DNA from: Luteimonas fraxinea
Lineage (GTDB): Bacteria > Pseudomonadota > Gammaproteobacteria > Xanthomonadales > Xanthomonadaceae
Reading direction: 5' to 3'
Assembly (NCBI RefSeq): GCF_021233355.1
Contig: NZ_CP089507.1
Span: 2,667,001-2,731,000, forward strand
DNA length: 64,000 nucleotides
Position numbers and translations under genes: made by a program. The notes below the pieces were generated by a model, which saw nothing but the letters and a program-made list of their open reading frames with translations, was not told the origin of the DNA and did no database searches. Below, piece by piece: positions 35,305 to 49,740 of the stretch (the first letter of the stretch is position 1; every line of letters begins with the position of its first letter).

Positions 35305-36909
35305 TTACTGGGTGCCGCGTTGCACGAACGGCGCCTGCTGGTAGAGCCGGCGCTCGCCGCCGCGCGGGTCGTCTTCGAGGCGCGGCGCCGCATCGAACAC
35401 CATCGTCTCGCGCGACGCCATCGAGTACGGCGCCCAGGCCGGCATGCCGGCGTGGTTGGGATCGCCGCTGCGTGCGAAAGCCAGCAGGGCGTCGCGCAAT
35501 GCCGCAGCCACGGTGCGCGCTTCATCGGTGTCGCCGGTCTTCGCGCCGGCCACGTCGGTGTTGCCGAACACCAGCGGAATGTCAAGCGTGTGGAATGCGC
35601 GCAGGCGCTTTCCTTCCCCGGTGCGCGGATACCAGTCGAGCTGGTAGGCCCAGGTGTTGGTGCCTTGCGCGGCGCGTACTTCCAGTTCCTCGACGGCGCC
35701 ACGCCACGAGCGTCCGGCCGTCGTCGCGGCGAAGAACACCTCCGACGGCGTGTAATCCGGATACAGCCGCCGGTACTCGGCGACGACGACCGCAGGATCG
35801 AGATCGACGAACTGCTGCGTGCGCAGCTTCGCCGGCAACGCATCCCAGGTCAGCGCGAAGTTGTCCGGATCGTTGCCGAGGAAGGCGCGCGTTTCGTCGC
35901 GCGTGTTGCCGATGACCATCGGGATGCCGGCCGACTGCGGCGGCGCATCCGGCCAGAACGGATGGCGCGGCAGATGCACGGTGTCGACGACCGGGCCGAA
36001 ATACAGCGCGCTGTCCTCGACACGCGAGGGATCGCGCGCGCGCTGCGCATCGAGCAGCGCCTGCATCGGCAGCGTGCGCAGCCGGTCGAGTTCGCCGGGT
36101 GCGATGCCCAGCGCATCCAGAAAGATCTGTGCGCGTTGCGTGGCGGCGCGCGGTCCTGCGGCGGTGACCTGCTGGCCGCTCATCGTCCATGCGCGATGGA
36201 ACAGGCCGCGCGCGGCCGGCATCGCCATCAGCGTCGCGATCTTCGCGCCGCCGCCGGACTGGCCGAACACGGTGACGTTGCCGGCGTCGCCGCCGAACTC
36301 GGCCGCATGCGCGCGGACCCATTCCAGCGCCTGCACCAGATCGAGCTGGCCGACGTTGCCGGCATACGCGAACGACGCATCGCCGAGATCGCGCAGATGC
36401 AGATAGCCGAACGCGTTGAGCCGGTGATTGATCGTGATCACCACGACATCGCCGCGGCGCGACAGCGCGCCGCCGTCATAGAGCGGATCGCTGCCCGATC
36501 CGGTGTTGAACGCGCCGCCGTGGATGTAGACCAGCACGGGGCGCTTCGCGCCATCGCGCAAGGCCGGCGTCCAGATATTGAGGCGCAGACAGTCCTCGCT
36601 GCCGGGTCCATCGCTGCCACGCTGCGGGGCGGACGGCCCGTAGTCGAACGCATCGCGCACGCCGCGCCAGGCGGTTTCCTGCAGCGCCGGCTGCCAGCGG
36701 CGCGTCGCCGTGTCGGCGCCATAGGGCACGCCGCGGAAGACATGCACGCCGTTCTCGACGCTGCCGCCGATCCGGCCGCTGCGCACGCGCGCGACCGTAG
36801 TGTGGGGTGATGTGGCGGCAAATGCGCCGGGCAGCGCGGACAACGCTGCGACGCCGGCGCCGACGCCCAACCAGTGGCGGCGGCCGGGATCGGTCGGGAT
36901 GTCAGTCAT
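35305..36909 (-). CDS. Type-B carboxylesterase/lipase family protein, exported
   Basis: A 534-residue alpha/beta hydrolase. The N-terminus has a twin-arginine-like signal (PGRRHWLGVGAGVAAL), so export may be through Tat. Family signatures are EDCLRLNIWTP, YIHGGAF with the oxyanion hole, and VFGQSGGGAK with the nucleophilic Ser; the likely catalytic His is in RAFHTLDIPLVF. The natural substrate is unknown; with acetylesterases on both sides it may hydrolyse acetyl or feruloyl esters on pectin side chains, an inference from context. Its ATG overlaps the stop of the preceding esterase gene by eight bases. Confidence 0.85.
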   Translation of the reverse strand: MTDIPTDPGRRHWLGVGAGVAALSALPGAFAATSPHTTVARVRSGRIGGSVENGVHVFRGVPYGADTATRRWQPALQETAWRGVRDAFDYGPSAPQRGSDGPGSEDCLRLNIWTPALRDGAKRPVLVYIHGGAFNTGSGSDPLYDGGALSRRGDVVVITINHRLNAFGYLHLRDLGDASFAYAGNVGQLDLVQALEWVRAHAAEFGGDAGNVTVFGQSGGGAKIATLMAMPAARGLFHRAWTMSGQQVTAAGPRAATQRAQIFLDALGIAPGELDRLRTLPMQALLDAQRARDPSRVEDSALYFGPVVDTVHLPRHPFWPDAPPQSAGIPMVIGNTRDETRAFLGNDPDNFALTWDALPAKLRTQQFVDLDPAVVVAEYRRLYPDYTPSEVFFAATTAGRSWRGAVEELEVRAAQGTNTWAYQLDWYPRTGEGKRLRAFHTLDIPLVFGNTDVAGAKTGDTDEARTVAAALRDALLAFARSGDPNHAGMPAWAPYSMASRETMVFDAAPRLEDDPRGGERRLYQQAPFVQRGTQ

Positions 36910-37858
36910 GGTGTCGGGTCTGTTCCTGGATCCAGTCGATGGCGAGCTGTGGCCAGCGGGCGAGGGCGCCCGTGGCGCCGCGCGTGCCGAAGCCATGTCC
37001 GCCATGCGGGAACACGTGCAGCGAGGTCGGCACGCCCGCGCGCAGCGCGGCGGCGTGCATCGCCAGGGCATTGCCGACCGGCACGACATCGTCGTCCTGC
37101 GCATGCAGCAGGAACAGCGGCGGCGTGCGGCTGTCGACGTGCAGATCGGGCGAATAGCGGTCGAGCGCGATCGCTTCGGGCGTGTCGCCCGCGGTGAGGA
37201 CACGCGCGCGGGAGCCGGCATGCGCCACCGGTGCATGCATCGAGATCACCGGATAGACGAGCAGGGCGAAGTCGGGCCGGAACGATTGCGTATCCGCCGC
37301 GTCCGTAGCGGCGTAGACCGCATCCGGCGTTGTGGCGAGACGCGCGGCGACGTGCCCGCCTGCGGAAAAGCCCATGACGCCGACGCGCGCCGGATCGATG
37401 CCGTAGTCGGATGCATGCGCACGGATCAGACGCATCGCGCGTTGTGCATCGGCCAGCGGCGCATCCGCGCCTTCGGCATGCGTGCGATCCGGCAGCCGAT
37501 AGCGCAACACGAACAGGGTGATGCCGGCCGCGTCCACGAACGCCGGCACCAGCGCCGTGCCCTCCTTGTCGAGGACGACGCGCGCATAGCCGCCGCCGGG
37601 CGTGACCAGCAGCGCGGTGCCGTTCGGGCGCTGCGGCGCGTACACGGCGAGATAGGGTGCGCGGACGTCTTCGATGATGCGATCGGGCAACGCGGGATCG
37701 TCGCTGCGCTCGGTGATGCGTCTAGTTGGCGCGTCCTCTGCGGTGTCCCACAAAACGATCGTCGGCACCGCATCGTCGCGTGCGAGTGCAGCATGAACGA
37801 CTGCAGGCAGCGCGAGCAGTAAAACGCTCAAAAGCGCTGTAAATCCACGTTTCCGCAT
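36902..37858 (-). CDS. Secreted alpha/beta hydrolase, acetylesterase-like
   Basis: A 318-residue protein with a signal peptide (MRKRGFTALLSVLLLALPAV, cleavage near VHA). The oxyanion-hole region VTPGGGY, the nucleophile elbow GVMGFSAGGHVA and the late Asp-His segment (HAQDDDVVP, HGGHGFG) match the esterase/acetylxylan-esterase-like branch of the alpha/beta hydrolases. It probably removes acetyl groups from hemicellulose or pectin fragments in the periplasm. It is the first gene of the three-esterase minus-strand set and shares a divergent promoter region, with operator (c), with the hydratase gene. Start 37858 is chosen for its clean signal peptide. Confidence 0.82.
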   Translation of the reverse strand: MRKRGFTALLSVLLLALPAVVHAALARDDAVPTIVLWDTAEDAPTRRITERSDDPALPDRIIEDVRAPYLAVYAPQRPNGTALLVTPGGGYARVVLDKEGTALVPAFVDAAGITLFVLRYRLPDRTHAEGADAPLADAQRAMRLIRAHASDYGIDPARVGVMGFSAGGHVAARLATTPDAVYAATDAADTQSFRPDFALLVYPVISMHAPVAHAGSRARVLTAGDTPEAIALDRYSPDLHVDSRTPPLFLLHAQDDDVVPVGNALAMHAAALRAGVPTSLHVFPHGGHGFGTRGATGALARWPQLAIDWIQEQTRHHD

Positions 37859-37917
37859 CGCAACCGCCCTCTCTTCCAACCGCGTCTTCGTGTTTTTGCC
37901 GCAGTGCACATTGAAGA

Positions 37918-37933
37918 TGACACCGGTTTACCA
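37918..37933. promoter_or_regulatory. Putative operator (c), esterase / hydratase divergent promoter
   Basis: TGACACCGGTTTACCA, an imperfect palindrome centred on CCGG with TG/CA ends. It lies 60 bases from the esterase start and 67 from the hydratase start, so it could control both directions. Confidence 0.6.
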
Positions 37934-37999
37934 TACAAGACACCCCCAGGCACCGCGATCTGCGGTGCAGCAAACGGACCCAGGCCAGGAGCAACCCGC

Positions 38000-38854
38000 T
38001 TGAACAACGCCTCCGCGCATCCGTCGACGTCGAATCCGACGCCGAGCGACGCCACCCGCGGCATCGTCGACGCCTTCCTCGACGCACGCCGGAACGGGCA
38101 GTCGCTGCCCGGCTTCCCCGGTGACATCCCCGATGATCTCGTTGCCGCATACGCGGTGCAGGACGCTGCAATCGCGCAGTGGCCCGACACCCTGGTCGGC
38201 TGGAAGGTCGGCTACATCGCACCGGAAAAGCGCGATGCCTCCGGTGACGAGCGTCTGCTGGGACCGGTGTTCCGCAACCGTCTGCAGCAGGCCGGCGAGG
38301 CCACGGAGTTCCATGTCTTCGCAGGCGGTTTCGGCGCGATCGAAGCCGAATTCGTGCTGCGTCTCGACGCTGACGCACCGGTGGACAAGATCGACTGGAC
38401 GCCCGACGAGGCGGCTGCTCTGCCGGCGACGCTGTTCATCGGCCTGGAAGTCGCCAGCAGCCCGCTGGCCACGATCAACCAGCTCGGCCCGCGCGTCGTG
38501 GTGTCGGACTTCGGCAACAACAACGGTCTGGTCGTCGGCGGCGAGATTCCGGACTGGACCTCGCTCGACGAAACCACGCTGAGCGCGGAGAGCTGGATCG
38601 ACGACACGCGCGTCGGCACCGGCGGTGCGACCACGCTGCCCGGCGGTCTGCGCGCGGCGTTCGCCTTCGCACTGTCGCGCTCGGCGCGTCGCGGCCGTCC
38701 GCTCAAGGCGGGCGAACTGATCGCGACCGGCAATGCCACCGGCATCCACGACATCCTGCCGGGCCAGCGCGCCCGCGTGGTGTTCGCCGGTCACGGCGAG
38801 ATGGTGCTGACGGCGCGCGCCGCGGCACCGCAGTCGGAGGAGGGCGCGGCATGA
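38000..38854 (+). CDS. 2-keto-4-pentenoate hydratase family protein (FAH/MhpD-like)
   Basis: A 284-residue cytoplasmic protein of the fumarylacetoacetate-hydrolase/MhpD fold. Visible family sequence includes VGWKVGYIAPE, FGAIEAEFVLRL with metal-ligand Glu residues, and LKAGELIATGNATGIHDILPG near the end. The family hydrates 2-hydroxypenta-2,4-dienoate-type acids or cleaves 3-ketoacids; the substrate here is unknown. I chose a TTG start at 38000 because AGGAG lies eight bases before it; an ATG at 37904 would put the operator inside the gene. It overlaps the TRAP binding-protein gene by ATGA, so it may process what that transporter brings in. Confidence 0.75.
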   Translation: MNNASAHPSTSNPTPSDATRGIVDAFLDARRNGQSLPGFPGDIPDDLVAAYAVQDAAIAQWPDTLVGWKVGYIAPEKRDASGDERLLGPVFRNRLQQAGEATEFHVFAGGFGAIEAEFVLRLDADAPVDKIDWTPDEAAALPATLFIGLEVASSPLATINQLGPRVVVSDFGNNNGLVVGGEIPDWTSLDETTLSAESWIDDTRVGTGGATTLPGGLRAAFAFALSRSARRGRPLKAGELIATGNATGIHDILPGQRARVVFAGHGEMVLTARAAAPQSEEGAA

Positions 38855-39843
38855 CGACACGGCGCGCATTCCTCGCCGGACTCGGTGCGGCCTGCGCCGC
38901 GCCGTTGATCCCGTCCGTGTCGCGCGCCGACGAGGCGAACACGGTCCTGACCGCCACCGACGTCCACGTCGCCGATTACCCCACCGTCAACGCGGTGAAG
39001 TGGATCGGCGAAACGATGGACCGCGAGACCAACGGTCGCGTGCGTCTGCGCCAGTACCACTCGGGCCAGCTGGGCCGCGAGTCGGAGGCGATCGACATGG
39101 CGCGCTTCGGCGCGATCGACATGACGCGCGTCTATGCCGGTGCGCTCAATAACGCGTTTCCGCTGACCACCGCACTGTGCCTGCCGTATGCATTCGATTC
39201 CGTCGCGCACATGCGCCACGCGCTCGACAGCGGCGTGGCGCAGACCGTGCTCGACGGCTTCGGCACGCGGGATCTCGTCGGCATGGCCGTCTACGACAGC
39301 GGCGCGCGCTGCTTCTACAACACGCGCCATCCGATCGTCACGCCGAAGGATCTGCACGGGTTGAAGCTGCGTGTTGCCTCGTCGGACATGTTCATCGACC
39401 TGGTGCGTCTGCTCGGTGCGAACCCGACGCCGATGTCACTGGGCGATACGTTCTCCGGCATGGAGACACACATGATCGACGGCGCCGAGAACAACATGCG
39501 CAGCTTCCATTCCAGCCGTCATTTCGAGGCCGCGCATTACTGGTCGCAGAGCGAGCATTCGTATGCGCCCGACATCCTGCTGATCTCGCGCCGCTCGCTG
39601 GATGCATTGCGTCCGGGCGATCGCGATCTGCTGATCGACACTGCACGTGCGTCGGTGCCGGTGATGCGCAAGATGTGGGACGAGTCCGAAGGCGCAGCGC
39701 GCCAGCAGGTCGCCGATTACGGCATCGAGTTCAACGATGTCGACATGGACGCGTTCCTCACCGCGGCGCAACCGATTCGCGACCGCTACCTGCAGCAGCC
39801 GGAACTGCAGGCCCTCTACCGTCGCATCCGCGACCTCGCCTGA
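38851..39843 (+). CDS. TRAP transporter substrate-binding protein (DctP family)
   Basis: A 330-residue periplasmic binding protein. Its N-terminus MTTRRAFLAGLGAACAAPLI is a Tat-type signal, so it is probably exported folded. The DctP fold is recognisable from GRVRLRQYHSGQLGRESEA, and LRVASSDMFIDLVRLLGAN contains the Arg that usually binds the ligand carboxylate. With the two membrane genes downstream it forms a sodium-driven TRAP transporter. Ligands are generally organic acids; in this island a uronate or unsaturated uronide is a reasonable guess. The stop lies 29 bases before the DctQ start. Confidence 0.9.
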   Translation: MTTRRAFLAGLGAACAAPLIPSVSRADEANTVLTATDVHVADYPTVNAVKWIGETMDRETNGRVRLRQYHSGQLGRESEAIDMARFGAIDMTRVYAGALNNAFPLTTALCLPYAFDSVAHMRHALDSGVAQTVLDGFGTRDLVGMAVYDSGARCFYNTRHPIVTPKDLHGLKLRVASSDMFIDLVRLLGANPTPMSLGDTFSGMETHMIDGAENNMRSFHSSRHFEAAHYWSQSEHSYAPDILLISRRSLDALRPGDRDLLIDTARASVPVMRKMWDESEGAARQQVADYGIEFNDVDMDAFLTAAQPIRDRYLQQPELQALYRRIRDLA

Positions 39844-39872
39844 TTCGACTGAATCCGACACGGGAATCCACG

Positions 39873-40391
39873 ATGTCCGAAGACACGACCCTCGCGCCCG
39901 AAGATGCGCCGAAAAGCGCGCTCGATCGCCTGGCCGATGCCGTCATCGCCGTTGCCGCCACCGCCCTGTTCGGGCTGGTGATCGTGCAGGGCTGGCAGGT
40001 GTTCGCCCGCTATGTGATCAATGATTCGCCCAGCTGGACCGAGCCGGTGACCCTGTTGCTGCTGGCCACCGCCATGAGTTTCGGTGCCGCCGCCGGCGTG
40101 CACACGAAGCGCCATTTCGGCTTCTTCCTGCTGCAGGACTACATGCGCCCGGCGATCCGCAAGCTGGTGGATCTGCTGATCCCGCTGGTGATCGTCGCGA
40201 TCGGCGCGGTCATCGCGTACTGGGGCGCGGTGCTGCTGTTCGACGGTCTGCACATCAAGGCTGCCGGCGCGTCGCTGCCGCAGAGCATCAACTACCTGCC
40301 GCTTTCGGTGGGTGGTGCGCTGATGGTGGTGTTCGCTCTCAACCAATTCGTGGGCGTGCTGCGCGCCGCGCCGGCCGGGGAGGGCCTCTGA
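39873..40391 (+). CDS. TRAP transporter small permease subunit (DctQ family)
   Basis: A 172-residue membrane protein with four hydrophobic segments, the normal DctQ layout. The stretch VFARYVINDSPSWTEPVTLL between segments one and two is characteristic. It joins with the DctM subunit encoded one base downstream to form the inner-membrane part of the TRAP transporter. Confidence 0.9.
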   Translation: MSEDTTLAPEDAPKSALDRLADAVIAVAATALFGLVIVQGWQVFARYVINDSPSWTEPVTLLLLATAMSFGAAAGVHTKRHFGFFLLQDYMRPAIRKLVDLLIPLVIVAIGAVIAYWGAVLLFDGLHIKAAGASLPQSINYLPLSVGGALMVVFALNQFVGVLRAAPAGEGL

Positions 40392-40392
40392 C

Positions 40393-41676
40393 ATGGCGAT
40401 CGCGCTTCTCTTCATCGTCTTCGCACTGCTGCTGATCCTCGGCGTCCCGGTGGCGTTCGCGCTCGCCGCGGCCGCACTGGCGACGCTGCTGTATCTCGAC
40501 CTGCCGTCGATCGTGCTGGTGCAGCAGATCTCCGCTGGTACGGGCACCGCTTCACTGATCGCGATTCCGCTCTTCATCTTCGCCGGCGAAATCATGATGC
40601 GCGGCGGCATCTCGGAACGCCTGATCGCACTGGCCTCTTCGCTGGTCGGCCGCATGCGCGGTGGTCTGGGCCAGGTATCGATCCTGTCGTCGCTGTTCTT
40701 CGGCGGCGTCTCGGGTTCGGCGATCGCCGACGTCTCCGCGGTCGGTGGCACGATGATTCCGCAGATGGTCAAGCGCGGCTACGACCGCGACTTCGCGGTC
40801 AACGTCAGCATCACCGCCGCGCTGGTCGCACTGCTGGTGCCGCCGTCGCACAACCTGATCCTCTACACCGCAGCGGCCGGTGGTGGCCTGTCGATCGCCG
40901 ACCTCTTCGCGGCCGGCATCATGCCCGCGCTTTTGATGACCGCGGCACTGATGGTGACCGGTTACTTCGTCGCCCGGCACCGCGGTTACGGCGTTGAGAT
41001 CTTTCCGGGCTGGCGCGCGGTACTGTTGCGTCTGGTGTCGGCGCTGCCGGGGCTGGGTCTGGTCGCCCTGATCTTCATCGGTATCCGCGCCGGCATCTTC
41101 ACCGCGGTCGAGAGCGCGGCCATCGCCGTGGTCTACGCACTGCTGGTGACGATCGTGCTGTACCGCCAGCTCAAGCTGCGCGAGTTCAAGGACACGATTG
41201 TCCACGCGGCGCGCAGCACTGGCGTGATCCTGTTCGTGATCGCGACGGCCTCGGTGTTTGGTTGGCTGCTTGCGTATCTGCAGGTGCCCTCGGCCGCGGT
41301 CGACTTCCTGCAGTCCTTCGCGCACAGCAAGCTCGCGGTGCTGCTGATGATCATCGTGGTGCTGCTATTGCTCGGCACCTTCATGGATCTGGCCCCGCTG
41401 ATCCTGATCTGCACCCCGATCTTCCTGCCCGTCGCCCGTGCCTACGGCATTGATCCGATCCACTTCGGTCTGGTGCTGGTGCTGACCGGCGGTCTCGGCC
41501 TGGTGACCCCACCGGTGGGCTCGGTGCTGTTCATCGGCACGGCGATCGGCAAGATCACCGTCGGCGAGAGCATGCGCACGATCTGGCCGTTCTGGCTTGC
41601 GGGTCTGGGGGTGTTGTTGATCGTGGCGCTGTTTCCGGAGCTGTCGTTGTGGTTGCCGGGGGTGTTGCGGGCCTGA
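40393..41676 (+). CDS. TRAP transporter large permease subunit (DctM family)
   Basis: A 427-residue membrane protein with about twelve hydrophobic segments, matching DctM in length. Family sequence such as IPLFIFAGEIMMRGGISERL, FFGGVSGSAIADVSAVG and LTGGLGLVTPPVGSVLFIG is present. It carries the substrate pathway and sodium sites of the TRAP transporter. It starts one base after the dctQ stop and ends before a strong terminator. Confidence 0.93.
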   Translation: MAIALLFIVFALLLILGVPVAFALAAAALATLLYLDLPSIVLVQQISAGTGTASLIAIPLFIFAGEIMMRGGISERLIALASSLVGRMRGGLGQVSILSSLFFGGVSGSAIADVSAVGGTMIPQMVKRGYDRDFAVNVSITAALVALLVPPSHNLILYTAAAGGGLSIADLFAAGIMPALLMTAALMVTGYFVARHRGYGVEIFPGWRAVLLRLVSALPGLGLVALIFIGIRAGIFTAVESAAIAVVYALLVTIVLYRQLKLREFKDTIVHAARSTGVILFVIATASVFGWLLAYLQVPSAAVDFLQSFAHSKLAVLLMIIVVLLLLGTFMDLAPLILICTPIFLPVARAYGIDPIHFGLVLVLTGGLGLVTPPVGSVLFIGTAIGKITVGESMRTIWPFWLAGLGVLLIVALFPELSLWLPGVLRA

Positions 41677-42726: not shown

Positions 42727-43593
42727 CTACCGCATCCGCATCTGTGCCGCGCGCGCCCATCGATCCGCCACCGCCGGCGATGTGAGACACGCCACCGTAT
42801 CCGTCACCGTCGTCACCGCCCGCTCCAGCAACTGGATATCCGCCTCGTGCTGACGCGCGACGTGCGGATCCTCGAAGAACACCGCGCGCTGGCAGCGCCC
42901 GGACAACACCAGATCGGCGATCTGCGCATCGCCGCCGAGCGGACCGCTCTGGAAACGTTGCGTCCACGGTTGATCGCTTGGCCAGCCGCGTTGCCAGGCG
43001 AGGTTGTTGAGCAACTGGCCTGTCGTGCCGGTCGCGACGCGGCCGGCGAAGCGGGAGAGCAGGTCGAAGTGGCGTTCGGCGAATTCCAGCATCCGCGGCT
43101 TCATCGCGTCGTGGGCGATCAGGGCGACGGTCTGGTGTTCGAAGGCGTGCAGATCGTCGGCGCCGCGATCGGCGGCGAGCCCTGCATGCAGGCGCTCGCT
43201 TTCGATGAAGTCGCGCGCTGATGCCACCGTCGACAGGAACGGTTTGCTCTGGATCACGCACTGGCGCTTCAGCGCCACTGCCTCGGGAAAAATAGAAGAC
43301 GGATCGACCGGATCGATCAGATACACCACGCCGTCGAGCGTGCGCTCCGGGCCGAGGCCGACGATTTCCGCGACCAGCGTCATCAGGCCGCCTTCGCGGC
43401 CGTAGGGATAGCGCCGCAGGCCGGCGTGGCCTGCGAGTGCATCGCGTTCGACGATTGCGTCGAACGTGCGGCCCACGGCATGCAGGCCGATGTCGAGTTC
43501 ACGGATGCCGGCGCCGCTGGCGTGGAGCCAGCGGAACAGCGCGGCATCCGGGCGCGCGTGGTGCAGCCGGTTCGCGGCCAGCCCCAGGCGCAT
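42727..43593 (-). CDS. Two-domain methylglyoxal synthase
   Basis: A 288-residue protein, nearly twice the size of standard MgsA (152 residues in E. coli). The C-terminal half (about 153-280) is a complete methylglyoxal synthase: His161-Asp162 in IAHDAMK, the phosphate-binding ATGTTG (188-192), GPLGGD with catalytic Asp222, and DPHVARQHEAD with His249 and Asp252. The N-terminal half (1-132) is a second, degenerate copy: LHAVGRTFD, GREGGL (the Asp replaced by Leu70) and LIDPVDPSSIFPE (His replaced by Ile101), then KPFLSTVASARDFIES as in MgsA. The enzyme turns dihydroxyacetone phosphate into methylglyoxal, a bypass when sugar influx exceeds phosphate supply. It is the last gene of the xyl operon, its ATG overlapping the transporter TGA. 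Confidence 0.85.
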   Translation of the reverse strand: MRLGLAANRLHHARPDAALFRWLHASGAGIRELDIGLHAVGRTFDAIVERDALAGHAGLRRYPYGREGGLMTLVAEIVGLGPERTLDGVVYLIDPVDPSSIFPEAVALKRQCVIQSKPFLSTVASARDFIESERLHAGLAADRGADDLHAFEHQTVALIAHDAMKPRMLEFAERHFDLLSRFAGRVATGTTGQLLNNLAWQRGWPSDQPWTQRFQSGPLGGDAQIADLVLSGRCQRAVFFEDPHVARQHEADIQLLERAVTTVTDTVACLTSPAVADRWARAAQMRMR

Positions 43594-44999
43594 CAGCCCT
43601 CCATCTGTTCGAGTGCGCGGCCCTTGGTCTCGTGCACGTAGCGCAGCACGAAGAACACCGAGATCACCGCAGCCACCAGATAGATGCTGTACGTCGCCGC
43701 GAGGCCGATGCCGGCCAGCAGGATCGGGAAGCTCACGGTCACCGCGAAGTTCGCCGTCCATTGCACCGCGCCGGCGACGGCGAGGCCGGAACCGCGGATC
43801 TGGTTGGGGAACATCTCGCCCAGCATCACCCACATCACCGGGCCCCAGGAGACGTTGAAGAACACGACGTAGGCGTTGGCGGCGACCAGCGCGAGCATGC
43901 CCATGTTGTCCGAGAGCTGCAGATGGCCGTCGACCAGCGAGCCGGATGCGAACGCCCAGGTCACCAGCGCCAGCGAGATCGCCATGCCGACCGAACCGAT
44001 CCACAGCAGCGGCTTGCGGCCGATGCGGTCGATCAGCAGCAGCGCGACGATGCAGGCGCCGATGCTCAGCGCGCCGGACAGCACGTTGATCAGCAGCGCG
44101 TCGTTCTCGGAGAAGCCGACTGCCTGCCACAGCACCGCGCCGTAATAGAACACGACGTTGATGCCGACCAGCTGCTGGAACGTCGCCAGGCCGATGCCGA
44201 CCCAGACGATCTTGCGCACCTTGCGGGTCTGCTTGTCGACGAGATCGGACAGGCGCGGGCGGTGCTGTTCGTCGGACAGCGAACCTTCGATCTCGGCCAG
44301 CGTGGTGCGGGCCTGCGTGGCGCCGAACAGGCGCGTCAGCACGGCCAGTGCTTCTTCGCCGCGACGCTTGACCACCAGATAGCGCGGGCTTTCCGGAATC
44401 GCCAGCAGCAGCACCAGGAACACCAGCGACGGGAAGGCCTGCATCCAGAACATCCAGCGCCACGCGGGCAGGCCCAGCCACAGCGCTTCGGTGGATGCAC
44501 CCGCGGCGCGCGCGAGCAGGTAATTGCTGAGGAAGGCCGCGAACAGGCCGCTGATGATCGCGATCTGCTGCATCGTCGCCAGCCGGCCGCGGTAACGCGC
44601 GGGCGCGACTTCGGCGATGTAGGCCGGCGACATCACGCTGGCCGCGCCGACGGCGAAGCCGCCGAACACGCGCGCGATGATGAAGACCAGCGAGCTGTTC
44701 GCCGCGCCGGCGCCGATCGCCGAGACCAGGAACAGCACCGCCGAGATGATCAGCACCGAGCGGCGCCCCCAGCGGTCGGCGAGGCGGCCAGCGAAGAACG
44801 CGCCGATCGCGCAACCCAGCAGCATCGACGCGACCTCGAAGCCGAGGCCGGCCTTGCTCGATCCGAACGCGTGCTGCAGGCCGTCGACGGTGCCGTTGAT
44901 GACGCCGCTGTCGAAACCGAACAGGAAGCCGCCGATCGTGGCGACGCAACTGATCAGGATGATCAGGCGCGTGTTCTCGCCCGCGTGGGATGTGCTCAT
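43593..44999 (-). CDS. MFS sugar porter (XylE/GalP-like)
   Basis: A 468-residue transporter with twelve membrane segments. Sugar-porter signatures are clear: GRLADRWGRR between helices 2 and 3, IPESPRYLV after helix 6, QQLVGINVVFYYGAVL in helix 7, DRIGRKPLL between helices 8 and 9, and VHETKGRALEQ at the end. It probably brings D-xylose into the cell by proton symport, given xylA and xylB upstream in the same minus-strand operon. The gap from the xylA stop is 32 bases. Confidence 0.92.
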   Translation of the reverse strand: MSTSHAGENTRLIILISCVATIGGFLFGFDSGVINGTVDGLQHAFGSSKAGLGFEVASMLLGCAIGAFFAGRLADRWGRRSVLIISAVLFLVSAIGAGAANSSLVFIIARVFGGFAVGAASVMSPAYIAEVAPARYRGRLATMQQIAIISGLFAAFLSNYLLARAAGASTEALWLGLPAWRWMFWMQAFPSLVFLVLLLAIPESPRYLVVKRRGEEALAVLTRLFGATQARTTLAEIEGSLSDEQHRPRLSDLVDKQTRKVRKIVWVGIGLATFQQLVGINVVFYYGAVLWQAVGFSENDALLINVLSGALSIGACIVALLLIDRIGRKPLLWIGSVGMAISLALVTWAFASGSLVDGHLQLSDNMGMLALVAANAYVVFFNVSWGPVMWVMLGEMFPNQIRGSGLAVAGAVQWTANFAVTVSFPILLAGIGLAATYSIYLVAAVISVFFVLRYVHETKGRALEQMEG

Positions 45000-45031: not shown

Positions 45032-46375
45032 TCAGCGACGCAGGTACTGGTTGATCAGGTTTTCGTAGAGTTCCTGGCGGCCGCTGCGCTGCTGCGGTTC
45101 GCCGCGCTTGCTCGCGATCGAGTGCAGGTCGGTCAGCGAGCGCTCGCCGCGTGCGAAGGCCTGGCCGTCGCCATCGTCGAAGCTCGCGTAACGCGCACTT
45201 CGCCAGTCTTCCAGCGGCGAGACGTCGAGCAATGCGTGCGCGACCTCGAGGCCGCGCGCGAAGGCGTCCATGCCGCCGATGTGCGCGGCGAACAGATCTT
45301 CGGCATCGGTCGATTCGCGGCGCACCTTGGCGTCGAAGTTCAGACCGCCCGGTGCGAGGCCGCCCTGACGCAGCACGACCAGCATCGCGCCGACGGTGTC
45401 GTAGAGATCGCTCGGGAACTGGTCGGTGTCCCAGCCGTTCTGCGGATTGCCGCGGTTGGCGTCGATGCTGCCGAGCATGCCGGCGTCGCTGGCGACCTGC
45501 AGGTCGTGTTCGAAGCTGTGGCCCGATAGCGTGGCGTGGTTGGCCTCGATGTTGAGCTTGAAGTCCTGGTCCAGGCCGTGCGCACGCAGGAAGCCGACGC
45601 AGGTCGCGCTGTCGAAATCGTACTGGTGCTTCATCGGTTCCATCGGCTTGGGCTCGATGAGGAAGGTCCCCTTGAAGCCGATGCTACGCCCGTAATCGCG
45701 CGCCGCGGTCAGGAAGCGCGCCATGTGGTCCTGCTCGCGCTTCATCTGCGTGTTGTGCAGGCTGGCGTAGCCCTCGCGGCCGCCCCAGAACACGTAGTTC
45801 GCACCGCCCAGTTCCACCGTCGCATCCAGCGCCGCCTTGACCTGCACCGCGGCGCGCGCGACGACGGCGAAGTCCGGGTTGGTCGATGCACCGTTCATGT
45901 AGCGCGGATGCGAGAACAGGTTCGCCGTGCCCCACAGCAGCTGCATGCCGGTGGCCTGCTGGCGCTGCTTGGCCAACGCGACCATGTGCTGCAGATTCTT
46001 CTCGTACTCGCCGATGTCGTCGGCATCCGGCGACAGGTCGACATCGTGGAAGCACCAGTACGGCACGCCGAGCTTGGTGAAGAATTCGAACGCCGCATCG
46101 AGGCGCGCTTCGGCCTTGTGCAGCGCCGTGCCGGTGCCGGCGTCCCACGGATACGCGCGCGAGCCGGGACCGAAAGGATCGGCGCCGTTGCCGCAGAAGC
46201 TGTGCCAGTAGCAGGCGGCGAACCGCAGGTGCTCGGCCATCGTGCGATCGCCGATCTTCCTGTTCGCGTCGTAGACCTTGAACGCCAGCGGATTGTCGGA
46301 GTCCGGGCCTTCGAATGCGATGCGCTCGATGCCGGGGAAGAACGTGGTGTCGCCGGTGAAAACCTGGGTGGACAT
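45032..46375 (-). CDS. xylA: Xylose isomerase
   Basis: A 447-residue class II-type xylose isomerase. It has the catalytic His in [13 protein letters not shown], the Lys in [18 protein letters not shown], and metal ligands in [19 protein letters not shown] and [20 protein letters not shown]. It converts D-xylose to D-xylulose in the cytoplasm. The start at 46375 gives the usual N-terminus; the open frame upstream overlaps the gap to xylB. It lies between xylB and the sugar porter. Confidence 0.97.
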
Positions 46376-46409: not shown

Positions 46410-47903
46410 TCAGGCGCGGTAGAGCGGGGCGATCGCGTCGAGATGGCGCACGAAGGCGCGGTAATGGGTGCGGTAGGCGTCGACGGTGGCGGCGTCGGGC
46501 TGCGCGGCGGCTGACTCGTCGAGCTGCACGTGCGCATCGACGACATCGGCCAGCGCGGCCCGGTCGCCGGCATGGCGCTGCAACGCCCAAAGCGCTTGCA
46601 GCGCGGCACCGAATGCGGCGCCTTCGGGCTGGGTGGGTACCGAGACCGGCAGATCGAGCATGTCGGCGGCCATCTGCCGCCAGGCCGCGCTGCGGCTGCC
46701 GCCGCCGGTGAGCAGCAGGGTGTCGAAACGCAGGCCTGCATCGACGAACGCATCGAAGCCGCTGCGCAGGCTGCAGGTCGCGCCTTCCATCGCTGCGCGC
46801 ACCAGATGCGCGGGCGTCATGTTCGATGGCGTCATGCCATGCAGGCAGCCGCGACCGGCCGGCAGGTTCGGCGTGCGCTCGCCGTTGAAGAACGGCAACA
46901 GCAGCAGGCCGTCGGCGCCGGGCGCCGTGTCGGCCAGCAGCGCTTCGCGTGCGGCGGTGGACAGCCCCAGCAGCCGGCCGATGGTCTCGGTGGCGACGGT
47001 GCAGTTCATCGTGCAGATCAGCGGCAGCCAGCCATCGGCCGATGCGCAGAACGCGGCCCAGCGCGCAGCGTCATCGACGACCGGCTGCGCGGCATGCGCG
47101 AACAGTGTGCCCGAGGTGCCGAGGCTCATCGTCAGACGGCCGGGCACGACGTTGCCGGTGCCGATCGCCGCCATCATGTTGTCGCCGCCGCCAACCGACA
47201 CGCGCACGTCCGGCGACAGGCCCAACGATTCGGCGGTCGTCGCGCGGATCGGCACGCTGGCGTCCGCGTCGAGCAGCGGCGGCAGGCACAGCGTGAGATC
47301 GCGATCGGGATCGATTGCCGACAGCAGCTCAGGCGACCAGCGACGCGTGCGCACATCCAGCCAGCCGGTGCCCGAGGCATCGCCGGCTTCCATGAAACGC
47401 TCGCCGGTCAGCCAGAAATTGAGGTAGTCGTGCGGCAGCAACACGGTGCGCATCGCGCGCCAGGCGTCGGGCCGGTTCGTGCGCGTCCATGCGAGTTTCG
47501 ACGCGGTGTAGCCGGCGAGGATCGGATTGCCGGCCGCGGCGATGCAGGCGGCCTCGCCGCCGACCGCGGCCATGATCGCATCGCATTCGGCCTGCGTGCT
47601 GGTGTCGCACCACAGCTTGACCGGCGCGACGACCGCGCCCGCCGCATCGACCGGCACGAAACCGTGCTGCTGGCCGGACACGCCGAGCGCGCGGATCCGC
47701 TGGCGGATGTCGGGGGCGATCTGCGCGAAGCAGTCGGCGATCGCCGTCGTCCACCAGTCGGCCTGCTGTTCGCGGGTGCCGTCGTCGCGTTCGATCAACG
47801 TCAACGCGGCGCTGGCGGCGGCGACCACGCTGCGACTGTCGGTGTCGTAGACCAGCAGTTTGACGCTCTGCGTGCCTGCATCGACGCCGGCGACGAGGGT
47901 CAC
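46410..47903 (-). CDS. xylB: Xylulokinase
   Basis: A 497-residue FGGY-family kinase. The first phosphate-binding loop is [15 protein letters not shown], the substrate region shows the [15 protein letters not shown] motif, and the second ATP-site glycine run is [14 protein letters not shown]. It phosphorylates D-xylulose to xylulose 5-phosphate. As first gene of the minus-strand xylB-xylA-porter-mgs operon, its promoter shares the 47904-48114 region with the divergent GH43 gene, where two operator sites lie. Confidence 0.95.
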
Positions 47904-48074: not shown

Positions 48075-48114
48075 TCCGACTGGATGCACCTGCCGTTTCT
48101 GCCTGGAGTTGCTG

Positions 48115-49740
48115 ATGTCGCGATCGATGTTGCGTGCCCCCGTTCTCGTTGCCTGCTGCGTGGCCGGCCTGTCATTCGCCGCGGGCGCATTCGCCGCGCC
48201 TCCTGTCGCCAGCGCCACGACGGACACGTCGCCCTGGGCGCGCGGCATCGAGAACCAGCGTCAGGCCGATCTCGGCGACGGCACCTTCCTCAATCCGGTG
48301 TTCGCAGGCGATCGCCCCGATCCATCGGTGCTCAAGGACGGCGACGATTACTACCTCACGCTGTCCTCGTTCGATGCCTATCCCGGCTTGCCGGTGTGGC
48401 ATTCGCGCGATCTGGTGAACTGGCAGCCGCTGGGCCACGCGATCACCAAGAACGTCGGTTCGATCTGGGCGCCGGACATCATCAAGCACGGCGAGCGCTA
48501 CTACATCTATTTCCCCGCGCGTACCGGCGGCACCGAAGGCAGCGAGCGCAGCAACTACGTGGTCTGGGCCGACGACATCAAGGGCCCGTGGAGCGAGCCG
48601 GTCGACATCGGCCTCGGCCGCTACATCGATCCCGGTCATGCGGTCGGCGAAGACGGCAAGCGCTATCTGTTCCTCAGCGGCGGCGGATACGTGCAGCTGT
48701 CCGATGATGGTCTGAGCGTCGTGGGCGAGCCCAAGCACGTCTACGACGGCTGGCAGTATCCGCAGGAGTGGGACGTCGAGGCCTATGCGCAGGAAGGCCC
48801 GAAGATCAATTTCCGCGACGGCTGGTATTACATGACCACCGCTGTCGGCGGCACCGCCGGTCCGCCGACCGGCCACATGGTGATCACCGCGCGCTCGCGT
48901 TCGATCCACGGCCCGTGGGAGAACTCGCCGCACAACCCGATAGTGCGTACCGTGGATCGCAGCGAGCCGTGGTGGTCGCGCGGCCACGCGACGATCGTCG
49001 AAGGCATCGACGACCGCTGGTGGATGATCTATCACGGCTACGAGAACGGCTATTGGACGCTCGGCCGCCAAGCACTGCTCGAGCCGATCGAATGGACCGA
49101 CGACGGCTGGTTCGTCGCCAAGGGCGGCGATCTCGGCCAGCCGCTGGCCAAGCCCGCCGGCGAGTCGGTCGGGCAACACGGCATGGCGCTGTCGGATGAT
49201 TTCAGCGGCAGCACCCTGGGCGCGCAGTGGTCGTTCTACAACCCGACTCAGACCGAATATGCGCGTCTGGGTTTCGGCGACGGCACGTTGTCGCTGCAGG
49301 GCAAGGGCACGCAGCCGCGCGACAGCTCGCCGCTGACGGTGATCGCCGGCGACAAGTCCTACGAATTCCAGGTGGAAATGGAGATCGAACCGGGCGCGCA
49401 GGGCGGGGCGCTGCTGTTCTACAGCGACAAGCTCTACGTCGGCGTGGGCAGCAACGGCGAGCGCTTCATCATGCATCGCTACGGCGAGGAACGACCGAGC
49501 CAGATCGCGCCCAGCGCCACCGGCGGCAAGCTCTGGATGCGGGTCAAGAACGACCAGCACATCGTGACCATCCACACCAGCACCGACGGCGAGACCTGGA
49601 CAAAATACCCGGTGCAGATGGAAATCTCGGGCTATCACCACAACGTGGCCGGCCGTTTCCTCGCGGTGAAGCCGGCGATCTACGCGGCTGGCGACGGCAA
49701 GGTGCACTTCCGGAACTTCCAGTACCGCGCGCTCGACTGA
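48115..49740 (+). CDS. Glycoside hydrolase family 43 protein (second copy)
   Basis: A 541-residue secreted enzyme; the signal peptide ends near AFAA. GH43 propeller motifs are DRPDPSVLKDGDDYYLT (general base), RYIDPGHAVGEDG (pKa Asp) and AQEGPKINFRDGWYY (general acid Glu). The C-terminal half (about 350-541) is a jelly-roll domain of the GH43 accessory type. Only modest similarity to the GH43 protein encoded at 32554 is visible, so it likely acts on another linkage, probably beta-xyloside or alpha-arabinoside given the adjacent xylose genes. GGAG six bases before the ATG at 48115 supports that start. The regulator gene follows 97 bases downstream. Confidence 0.88.
   Translation: MSRSMLRAPVLVACCVAGLSFAAGAFAAPPVASATTDTSPWARGIENQRQADLGDGTFLNPVFAGDRPDPSVLKDGDDYYLTLSSFDAYPGLPVWHSRDLVNWQPLGHAITKNVGSIWAPDIIKHGERYYIYFPARTGGTEGSERSNYVVWADDIKGPWSEPVDIGLGRYIDPGHAVGEDGKRYLFLSGGGYVQLSDDGLSVVGEPKHVYDGWQYPQEWDVEAYAQEGPKINFRDGWYYMTTAVGGTAGPPTGHMVITARSRSIHGPWENSPHNPIVRTVDRSEPWWSRGHATIVEGIDDRWWMIYHGYENGYWTLGRQALLEPIEWTDDGWFVAKGGDLGQPLAKPAGESVGQHGMALSDDFSGSTLGAQWSFYNPTQTEYARLGFGDGTLSLQGKGTQPRDSSPLTVIAGDKSYEFQVEMEIEPGAQGGALLFYSDKLYVGVGSNGERFIMHRYGEERPSQIAPSATGGKLWMRVKNDQHIVTIHTSTDGETWTKYPVQMEISGYHHNVAGRFLAVKPAIYAAGDGKVHFRNFQYRALD

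What the first reader, a model, noticed from the sequence alone, without database searches (positions are those of the whole stretch)
42727..43593. Methylglyoxal synthase with two tandem domains, one catalytically dead, ending the xylose operon
The C-terminal half retains every E. coli MgsA catalytic residue I can align (His161, Asp162, Asp222, His249, Asp252). The N-terminal half is a clear second copy that has lost Asp71 (now Leu70) and His98 (now Ile101). A pseudo-domain fused to an active one suggests built-in regulation, for example phosphate or sugar-phosphate sensing. Its place in a xyl operon suggests an overflow valve for pentose catabolism.
Basis: partly seen in the sequence, partly recalled or inferred. 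Interest (0 to 1): 0.75.

Follow-up and report, generated by a model that had tools for sequence, protein, structure and literature searches.

The report
Methylglyoxal synthase with non-catalytic twin domain
This bacterial gene encodes a methylglyoxal-making enzyme fused to a second copy of itself that has lost its catalytic residues but kept others of the pocket, which suggests a built-in control or support part.

Summary

The xylose reading is local. The gene ends a xylB-xylA-transporter cluster here, but xylBA is beside it in only 3 of 13 intact copies of the genus; 51 of 80 related loci have it downstream of gltD.

Best explanation: a working MGS domain with a non-catalytic twin that probably binds a ligand and tunes it (inferred). 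A purely structural twin is the main rival. NF003559's cut-off is met; those of TIGR00160 and Pfam MGS are not. New variant of a known kind.

The parts
42727..43593 (-). Two-domain methylglyoxal synthase gene, 288 aa
   Evidence: ORF and translation; NF003559 105 bits, cut-off 84
43174..43593 (-). N-terminal non-catalytic MGS-fold domain (residues 1-140): N8, L70 and I101 at the H19, D71 and H98 positions; D94 and E104 at the D91 and D101 positions
43141..43173 (-). Linker (residues 141-151)
   Evidence: Between the two folds in the full-length model, where it is partly helical
42730..43140 (-). C-terminal MGS domain (residues 152-288), catalytic and substrate residues present
43593..44999 (-). 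Sugar porter (MFS; best equivalog hit XylE, 383.8 bits, below its 608 cut-off); stop overlaps the MGS start (TGATG)
45032..46375 (-). xylA, xylose isomerase (start inferred from the model match; the listed ORF runs on to 46753)
   Evidence: NF009115 899.1 bits (cut-off 888), TIGR02630 680.1 bits (cut-off 533.25); start context
46410..47903 (-). xylB, xylulokinase
   Evidence: TIGR01312 507.8 bits, cut-off 380.25
48109..49740 (+). Glycoside hydrolase family 43 with a beta-xylosidase-type C-terminal domain, divergent from xylB
   Evidence: PF04616 and PF17851
49838..50890 (+). LacI-family regulator
   Evidence: PF00356 and PF13377

Best explanation
The gene encodes a two-domain methylglyoxal synthase. 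The C domain turns dihydroxyacetone phosphate into methylglyoxal and phosphate (inferred from the complete active site and the fold). The N domain is an old second MGS fold that lacks the residues for this reaction but keeps a pocket with acidic residues at both substrate-recognition positions and basic residues near the phosphate loops. It most likely binds a small acidic or phosphorylated metabolite and tunes the C domain, much as the MGS-like domain of carbamoyl phosphate synthetase is an allosteric domain. In this genome the gene is probably translated together with a sugar transporter behind xylB and xylA, so it would rise with pentose uptake and act as a relief valve that frees phosphate when triose phosphates pile up; the glyoxalases of the same genome would remove the product. 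Shown: the two folds (as predicted models), the residue pattern, the co-directional overlapping genes, the glyoxalase genes. Inferred: enzyme activity, ligand binding, allostery, co-expression, the physiological role.
Against: No activity, ligand or oligomer data. The C domain is far from classical MgsA (branch 2.65) and misses the TIGR00160 and Pfam MGS cut-offs, so its substrate is not proven. The C pocket is much more conserved than the N pocket (4.06 against 3.21 bits), and several of the most fixed N residues (A107, R110, C112, A126) lie outside the pocket set. Some N-pocket residues vary: Arg42 in 143 of 239, Arg66 in 211 of 239. The gene context outside the genus gives no support for a sugar-linked role in general, apart from edd/eda in one distant member.
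Confidence: 0.58

Rival explanations
1. The N domain is purely structural: MGS works as a hexamer (recalled), and three fused chains would supply six MGS folds, with the dead copy holding the three live ones in place. No ligand is sensed.
For: Two MGS folds with a confident mutual placement in the model (pTM 0.90); strongly conserved positions outside the pocket set such as A107, P118, F119 and A126; no clearly intact stand-alone N domain seen.
Against: The pocket positions are on average more conserved than the rest of the domain, and both substrate-recognition acids are kept in 239 of 239, more than a mere scaffold seems to need.
Confidence: 0.3
2. The N domain is a second enzyme with different chemistry on a related sugar or triose phosphate, so the protein is bifunctional.
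Against: NCBIfam gives the N domains no other family at a convincing E-value (three other families, one member each, best 0.04). The D71 position is Leu, Val or Ile in 237 of 239 and the H98 position in 215 of 239.
Confidence: 0.08
3. The C domain is not a methylglyoxal synthase but acts on another phosphorylated substrate, and the database name is wrong.
For: Scores 84.6 bits against TIGR00160's cut-off of 146.9 and 16.4 against Pfam's 24.1; long branch to classical MgsA; extra segment between the TGTTG and SGP loops, tens of residues in some distant members.
Against: All six listed catalytic and substrate residues intact in 238 of 239; over the NF003559 cut-off; none of 8 sampled genomes with the two-domain form has a classical gene, as expected for the same role, though 8 is few.
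Confidence: 0.08

Closest known systems
Classical single-domain methylglyoxal synthase MgsA (E. coli, Thermus, B. subtilis; EC 4.2.3.3)
   Same: Fold and all catalytic and substrate residues of the C domain; over the NF003559 cut-off
   Different: 288 aa with two MGS folds, the first non-catalytic; C domain forms its own clade away from classical MgsA; below the TIGR00160 and PF02142 cut-offs
MGS-like allosteric domain of carbamoyl phosphate synthetase (CarB, human CPS1 L4)
   Different: Here the partner is an MGS domain and the dead copy is N-terminal; no ligand is known
Tandem universal stress proteins (UspE type)
   Different: A weak match in the range that the tool calls a common arrangement; no sequence relation seen; treated as likeness only

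Membership tests
Methylglyoxal synthase (MgsA) | Catalytic residues H19, D71, H98 and substrate residues G66, D91, D101 | tested here: met
   C domain: all six in P0001 and in 238 of 239 proteins, window's own included
Methylglyoxal synthase (MgsA) | MGS fold | tested here: met
Methylglyoxal synthase (MgsA) | NCBI equivalog NF003559 cut-off | tested here: met
   105 bits against 84
Classical single-domain MgsA | NCBI equivalog TIGR00160 cut-off and Pfam MGS gathering score | tested here: not met
   84.6 against 146.9; 16.4 against 24.1
Classical single-domain MgsA | One domain of about 125-155 residues | tested here: not met
   288 aa, two MGS folds
Methylglyoxal synthase (MgsA) | Forms methylglyoxal from dihydroxyacetone phosphate; phosphate-inhibited hexamer (recalled) | not testable with these tools
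   Needs purified protein
MGS-like allosteric domain (as in CPSase) | Non-catalytic MGS fold | tested here: met
   N domain: 0 of 239 with Asp at D71; fold. Lack of catalysis is inferred from the residues
MGS-like allosteric domain (as in CPSase) | Binds an effector that changes the activity of its partner | not testable with these tools
   No ligand data
Xylose operon gene | Kept beside xylA/xylB in relatives | tested here: not met
   xylBA adjacent in 3 of 13 intact copies of the genus and in 2 of 80 loci (the two sets overlap)

The most novel reading that the evidence does not exclude
The two-domain protein is an unrecognised, allosterically controlled class of methylglyoxal synthase in which the dead twin reads a metabolite other than the classical inhibitor phosphate: a pentose or triose phosphate at this locus, or, given its frequent place downstream of glutamate synthase genes and the glutamate-like ligand of the related CPS1 domain, a signal of nitrogen state, so that carbon overflow is set by carbon/nitrogen balance.
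Probability: 0.2. Interest if true: 0.7.

Novelty: new variant of a known kind. Interest (0 to 1): 0.5.

Why it matters
Methylglyoxal synthase makes a toxic compound and must be tightly controlled. A second form of it, with a dead twin that has lost catalytic residues but kept acids at both substrate-recognition positions in 239 of 239 listed proteins, gives a direct test of how such control can be built into the chain, and refines the automatic name that many of these proteins carry. In the 8 sampled genomes that hold it, it is the only methylglyoxal synthase found, so it may be the form to study in Xanthomonas, Stenotrophomonas, Dyella and relatives such as Variovorax.

Tried and rejected
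Chance or artefact: rejected, because N-half similarity to MGS is found by HMM, by profile comparison and by fold. A BLAST of the two halves against each other found nothing of note (E 0.68), and a first profile comparison on near-identical sequences was weak (E 0.018, probability 2.5%). Profiles of 59 and 56 diverse rows connect them only moderately (E 1.6e-4, probability 50%), so each half resembles MgsA more clearly than the other half. Pfam does not report the N half at E up to 1, and PDB sequences match only the C half at E up to 1.

Xylose operon as the general home: rejected. Within the genus 11 of 13 genomes with the gene intact have xylA over its cut-off, against 15 of the other 39 (Fisher p 0.009); this ignores shared ancestry and is not used as evidence.

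Stand-alone N domains: 168 short proteins matched, 120 were listed; 64 of the 120 lacked a C-domain hit, and by their printed ends look mostly like fragments or frame-shifts; they were not checked one by one, and only candidates sharing most words were scored.

Dating the fusion: the tree separates N, C and classical MgsA but is unrooted, with long branches that the tool warns about; whether N arose from C or from another MGS is open.

Gene calls for neighbours: a first greedy ORF scheme failed in these GC-rich loci and was replaced by tblastn with chosen neighbours, so other shared neighbours may be missed.

Papers: eight searches of the held open-access library showed no work on a two-domain or tandem methylglyoxal synthase, judged from titles and abstract starts. 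Lists were capped (15 of 8,612; 20 of 38; 12 of 52). Four papers were read in passages. Subscription papers are not held.

The 239 proteins are the window protein and the listed best hits of two searches (120 each) of 270 aa or more; two shorter ones were dropped. They are not a random sample. N-domain position matches rest on alignment; the stretch D91-D101 is gap-free, the match near K23 is uncertain because of a four-residue insert.

Full report
The gene. The ORF at 42727-43593 (minus) gives a 288-aa protein. It is the last of four co-directional genes: xylB (46410-47903), xylA (45032-46375; the listed ORF is longer, but the xylose isomerase models begin at residues 127-138 of it), a sugar porter (43593-44999) and the MGS gene. 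The porter's stop and the MGS start share one base (TGATG) with a GGAGG just before, so translation is probably coupled. The porter's best equivalog is XylE but below its cut-off (383.8 against 608), so its sugar is not certain. A GH43 enzyme and a LacI regulator lie divergently upstream. The genome (4.0 Mb, one contig) shows no other MGS at E up to 1 except a 12-bit match taken as noise, and has glyoxalase I and II. The genus is probably Luteimonas, by the names of the nearest proteins and loci.

The C half. It carries the NF003559 match that is over the cut-off, misses TIGR00160 and Pfam MGS, and finds only MGS structures by sequence. The six residues that PMC1877815 (passages read) lists for E. 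coli (H19, D71 and H98 catalytic; D91 and D101 substrate recognition; G66 binding) are all present in 238 of 239 full-length proteins; the one exception has a gap at D71.

Spread. The 120 listed best hits are 254-297 aa long; where a source names them they are nearly always 'methylglyoxal synthase', mostly of Xanthomonadales. A distant member (43% identity), identical to an Arhodomonas protein, leads to others in Variovorax, Rhodoferax, Alcaligenes, Elstera, Telmatospirillum and Rhodovastum (their classes are recalled). Even draws of genomes give the N domain in 8 of 299 of the phylum and 6 of 369 of the class, the whole protein in 58 of 198 of the family and in 13 intact copies plus one remnant among 52 of the genus. 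In a phylum draw with the same handles 60 of 299 have an MGS match; the 8 with the N domain show only the weaker match (79.9-87.8 bits) and no classical gene, the other 52 score 130.5 or more. In a tree of 60 rows N halves, C halves and classical MgsA each fall on one side of a branch (100/100, 100/98, 87/80), which fits a single old fusion; the tree cannot say which came first.

Context. Of 80 loci, 51 have gltD and 49 gltB upstream on the same strand, 84 to 5756 bases away, 15 under 400 bases (identity confirmed by family models on one locus). Nine have the GH43/LacI locus of this window, two of those with xylA and xylB. The other 20 have neither; four of these hold less than 7 kb upstream. 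In the genus all 13 intact copies lie at this window's locus: next to the porter in 9, next to GH43 without it in 4, with xylBA in 3 (the window included). Arhodomonas has edd and eda upstream and a C-terminal extension; one genome of another family of the class has NADP glutamate dehydrogenase two genes on, on the other strand. So the xylose link is a local arrangement, not the protein's general setting.

Mechanism. The most likely reading is a working MGS with a ligand-binding, non-catalytic twin. In this genome, induction with pentose genes would fit the use of methylglyoxal formation against sugar-phosphate stress, for which PMC9356451 (passages) gives background, including a cited report that mgsA deletion gives glucose-xylose co-use in E. 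coli. The precedent for a regulatory MGS fold is human CPS1 (PMC4655335, passages). Activity, ligand and allostery are inferred. A structural twin that completes a hexamer is the serious rival.

Novelty. The parts are known; the arrangement, its strict residue pattern and its spread did not appear in the papers I could search (eight searches, partly capped listings). It is a variant of a known kind, of moderate interest because it makes control of a toxic side path directly testable.

Noticed in passing
L010-L080 (e.g. L012:1362-6891): The two-domain MGS gene lies downstream of gltB-gltD on the same strand in 51 (gltD) and 49 (gltB) of 80 loci; I know of no reason that links methylglyoxal to glutamate synthase.
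   Followed up: partly
L092 / L097 (Arhodomonas aquaeolei by identity to P0242): MGS relative of 542 aa with a C-terminal extension of about 200 residues of unknown function, just behind edd and eda of the Entner-Doudoroff pathway.
   Followed up: partly
window 35305-41676: Next to the xyl cluster: carboxylesterase, BD-FAE-type esterase and a TRAP transporter (DctP, DctQ, DctM); looks like a xylan or sugar-acid uptake locus.
   Followed up: partly
window 37904-38854: Conserved 316-aa ORF beside the TRAP genes (94% identity in L001) without a Pfam match at E 0.001 or an NCBIfam match at E 1e-10.
   Followed up: no
L125 (G660) and G652: One genus member keeps only remnants of the MGS gene (parts of residues 4-92) near a copy of the porter gene; another has its xylA in two pieces.
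   Followed up: no
L038, L075, P0086: Records titled Microbacterium, Bacillus subtilis and Flavobacterium carry copies at 74-77% identity like those of Xanthomonadales, probably mislabelled or contaminated assemblies.
   Followed up: no
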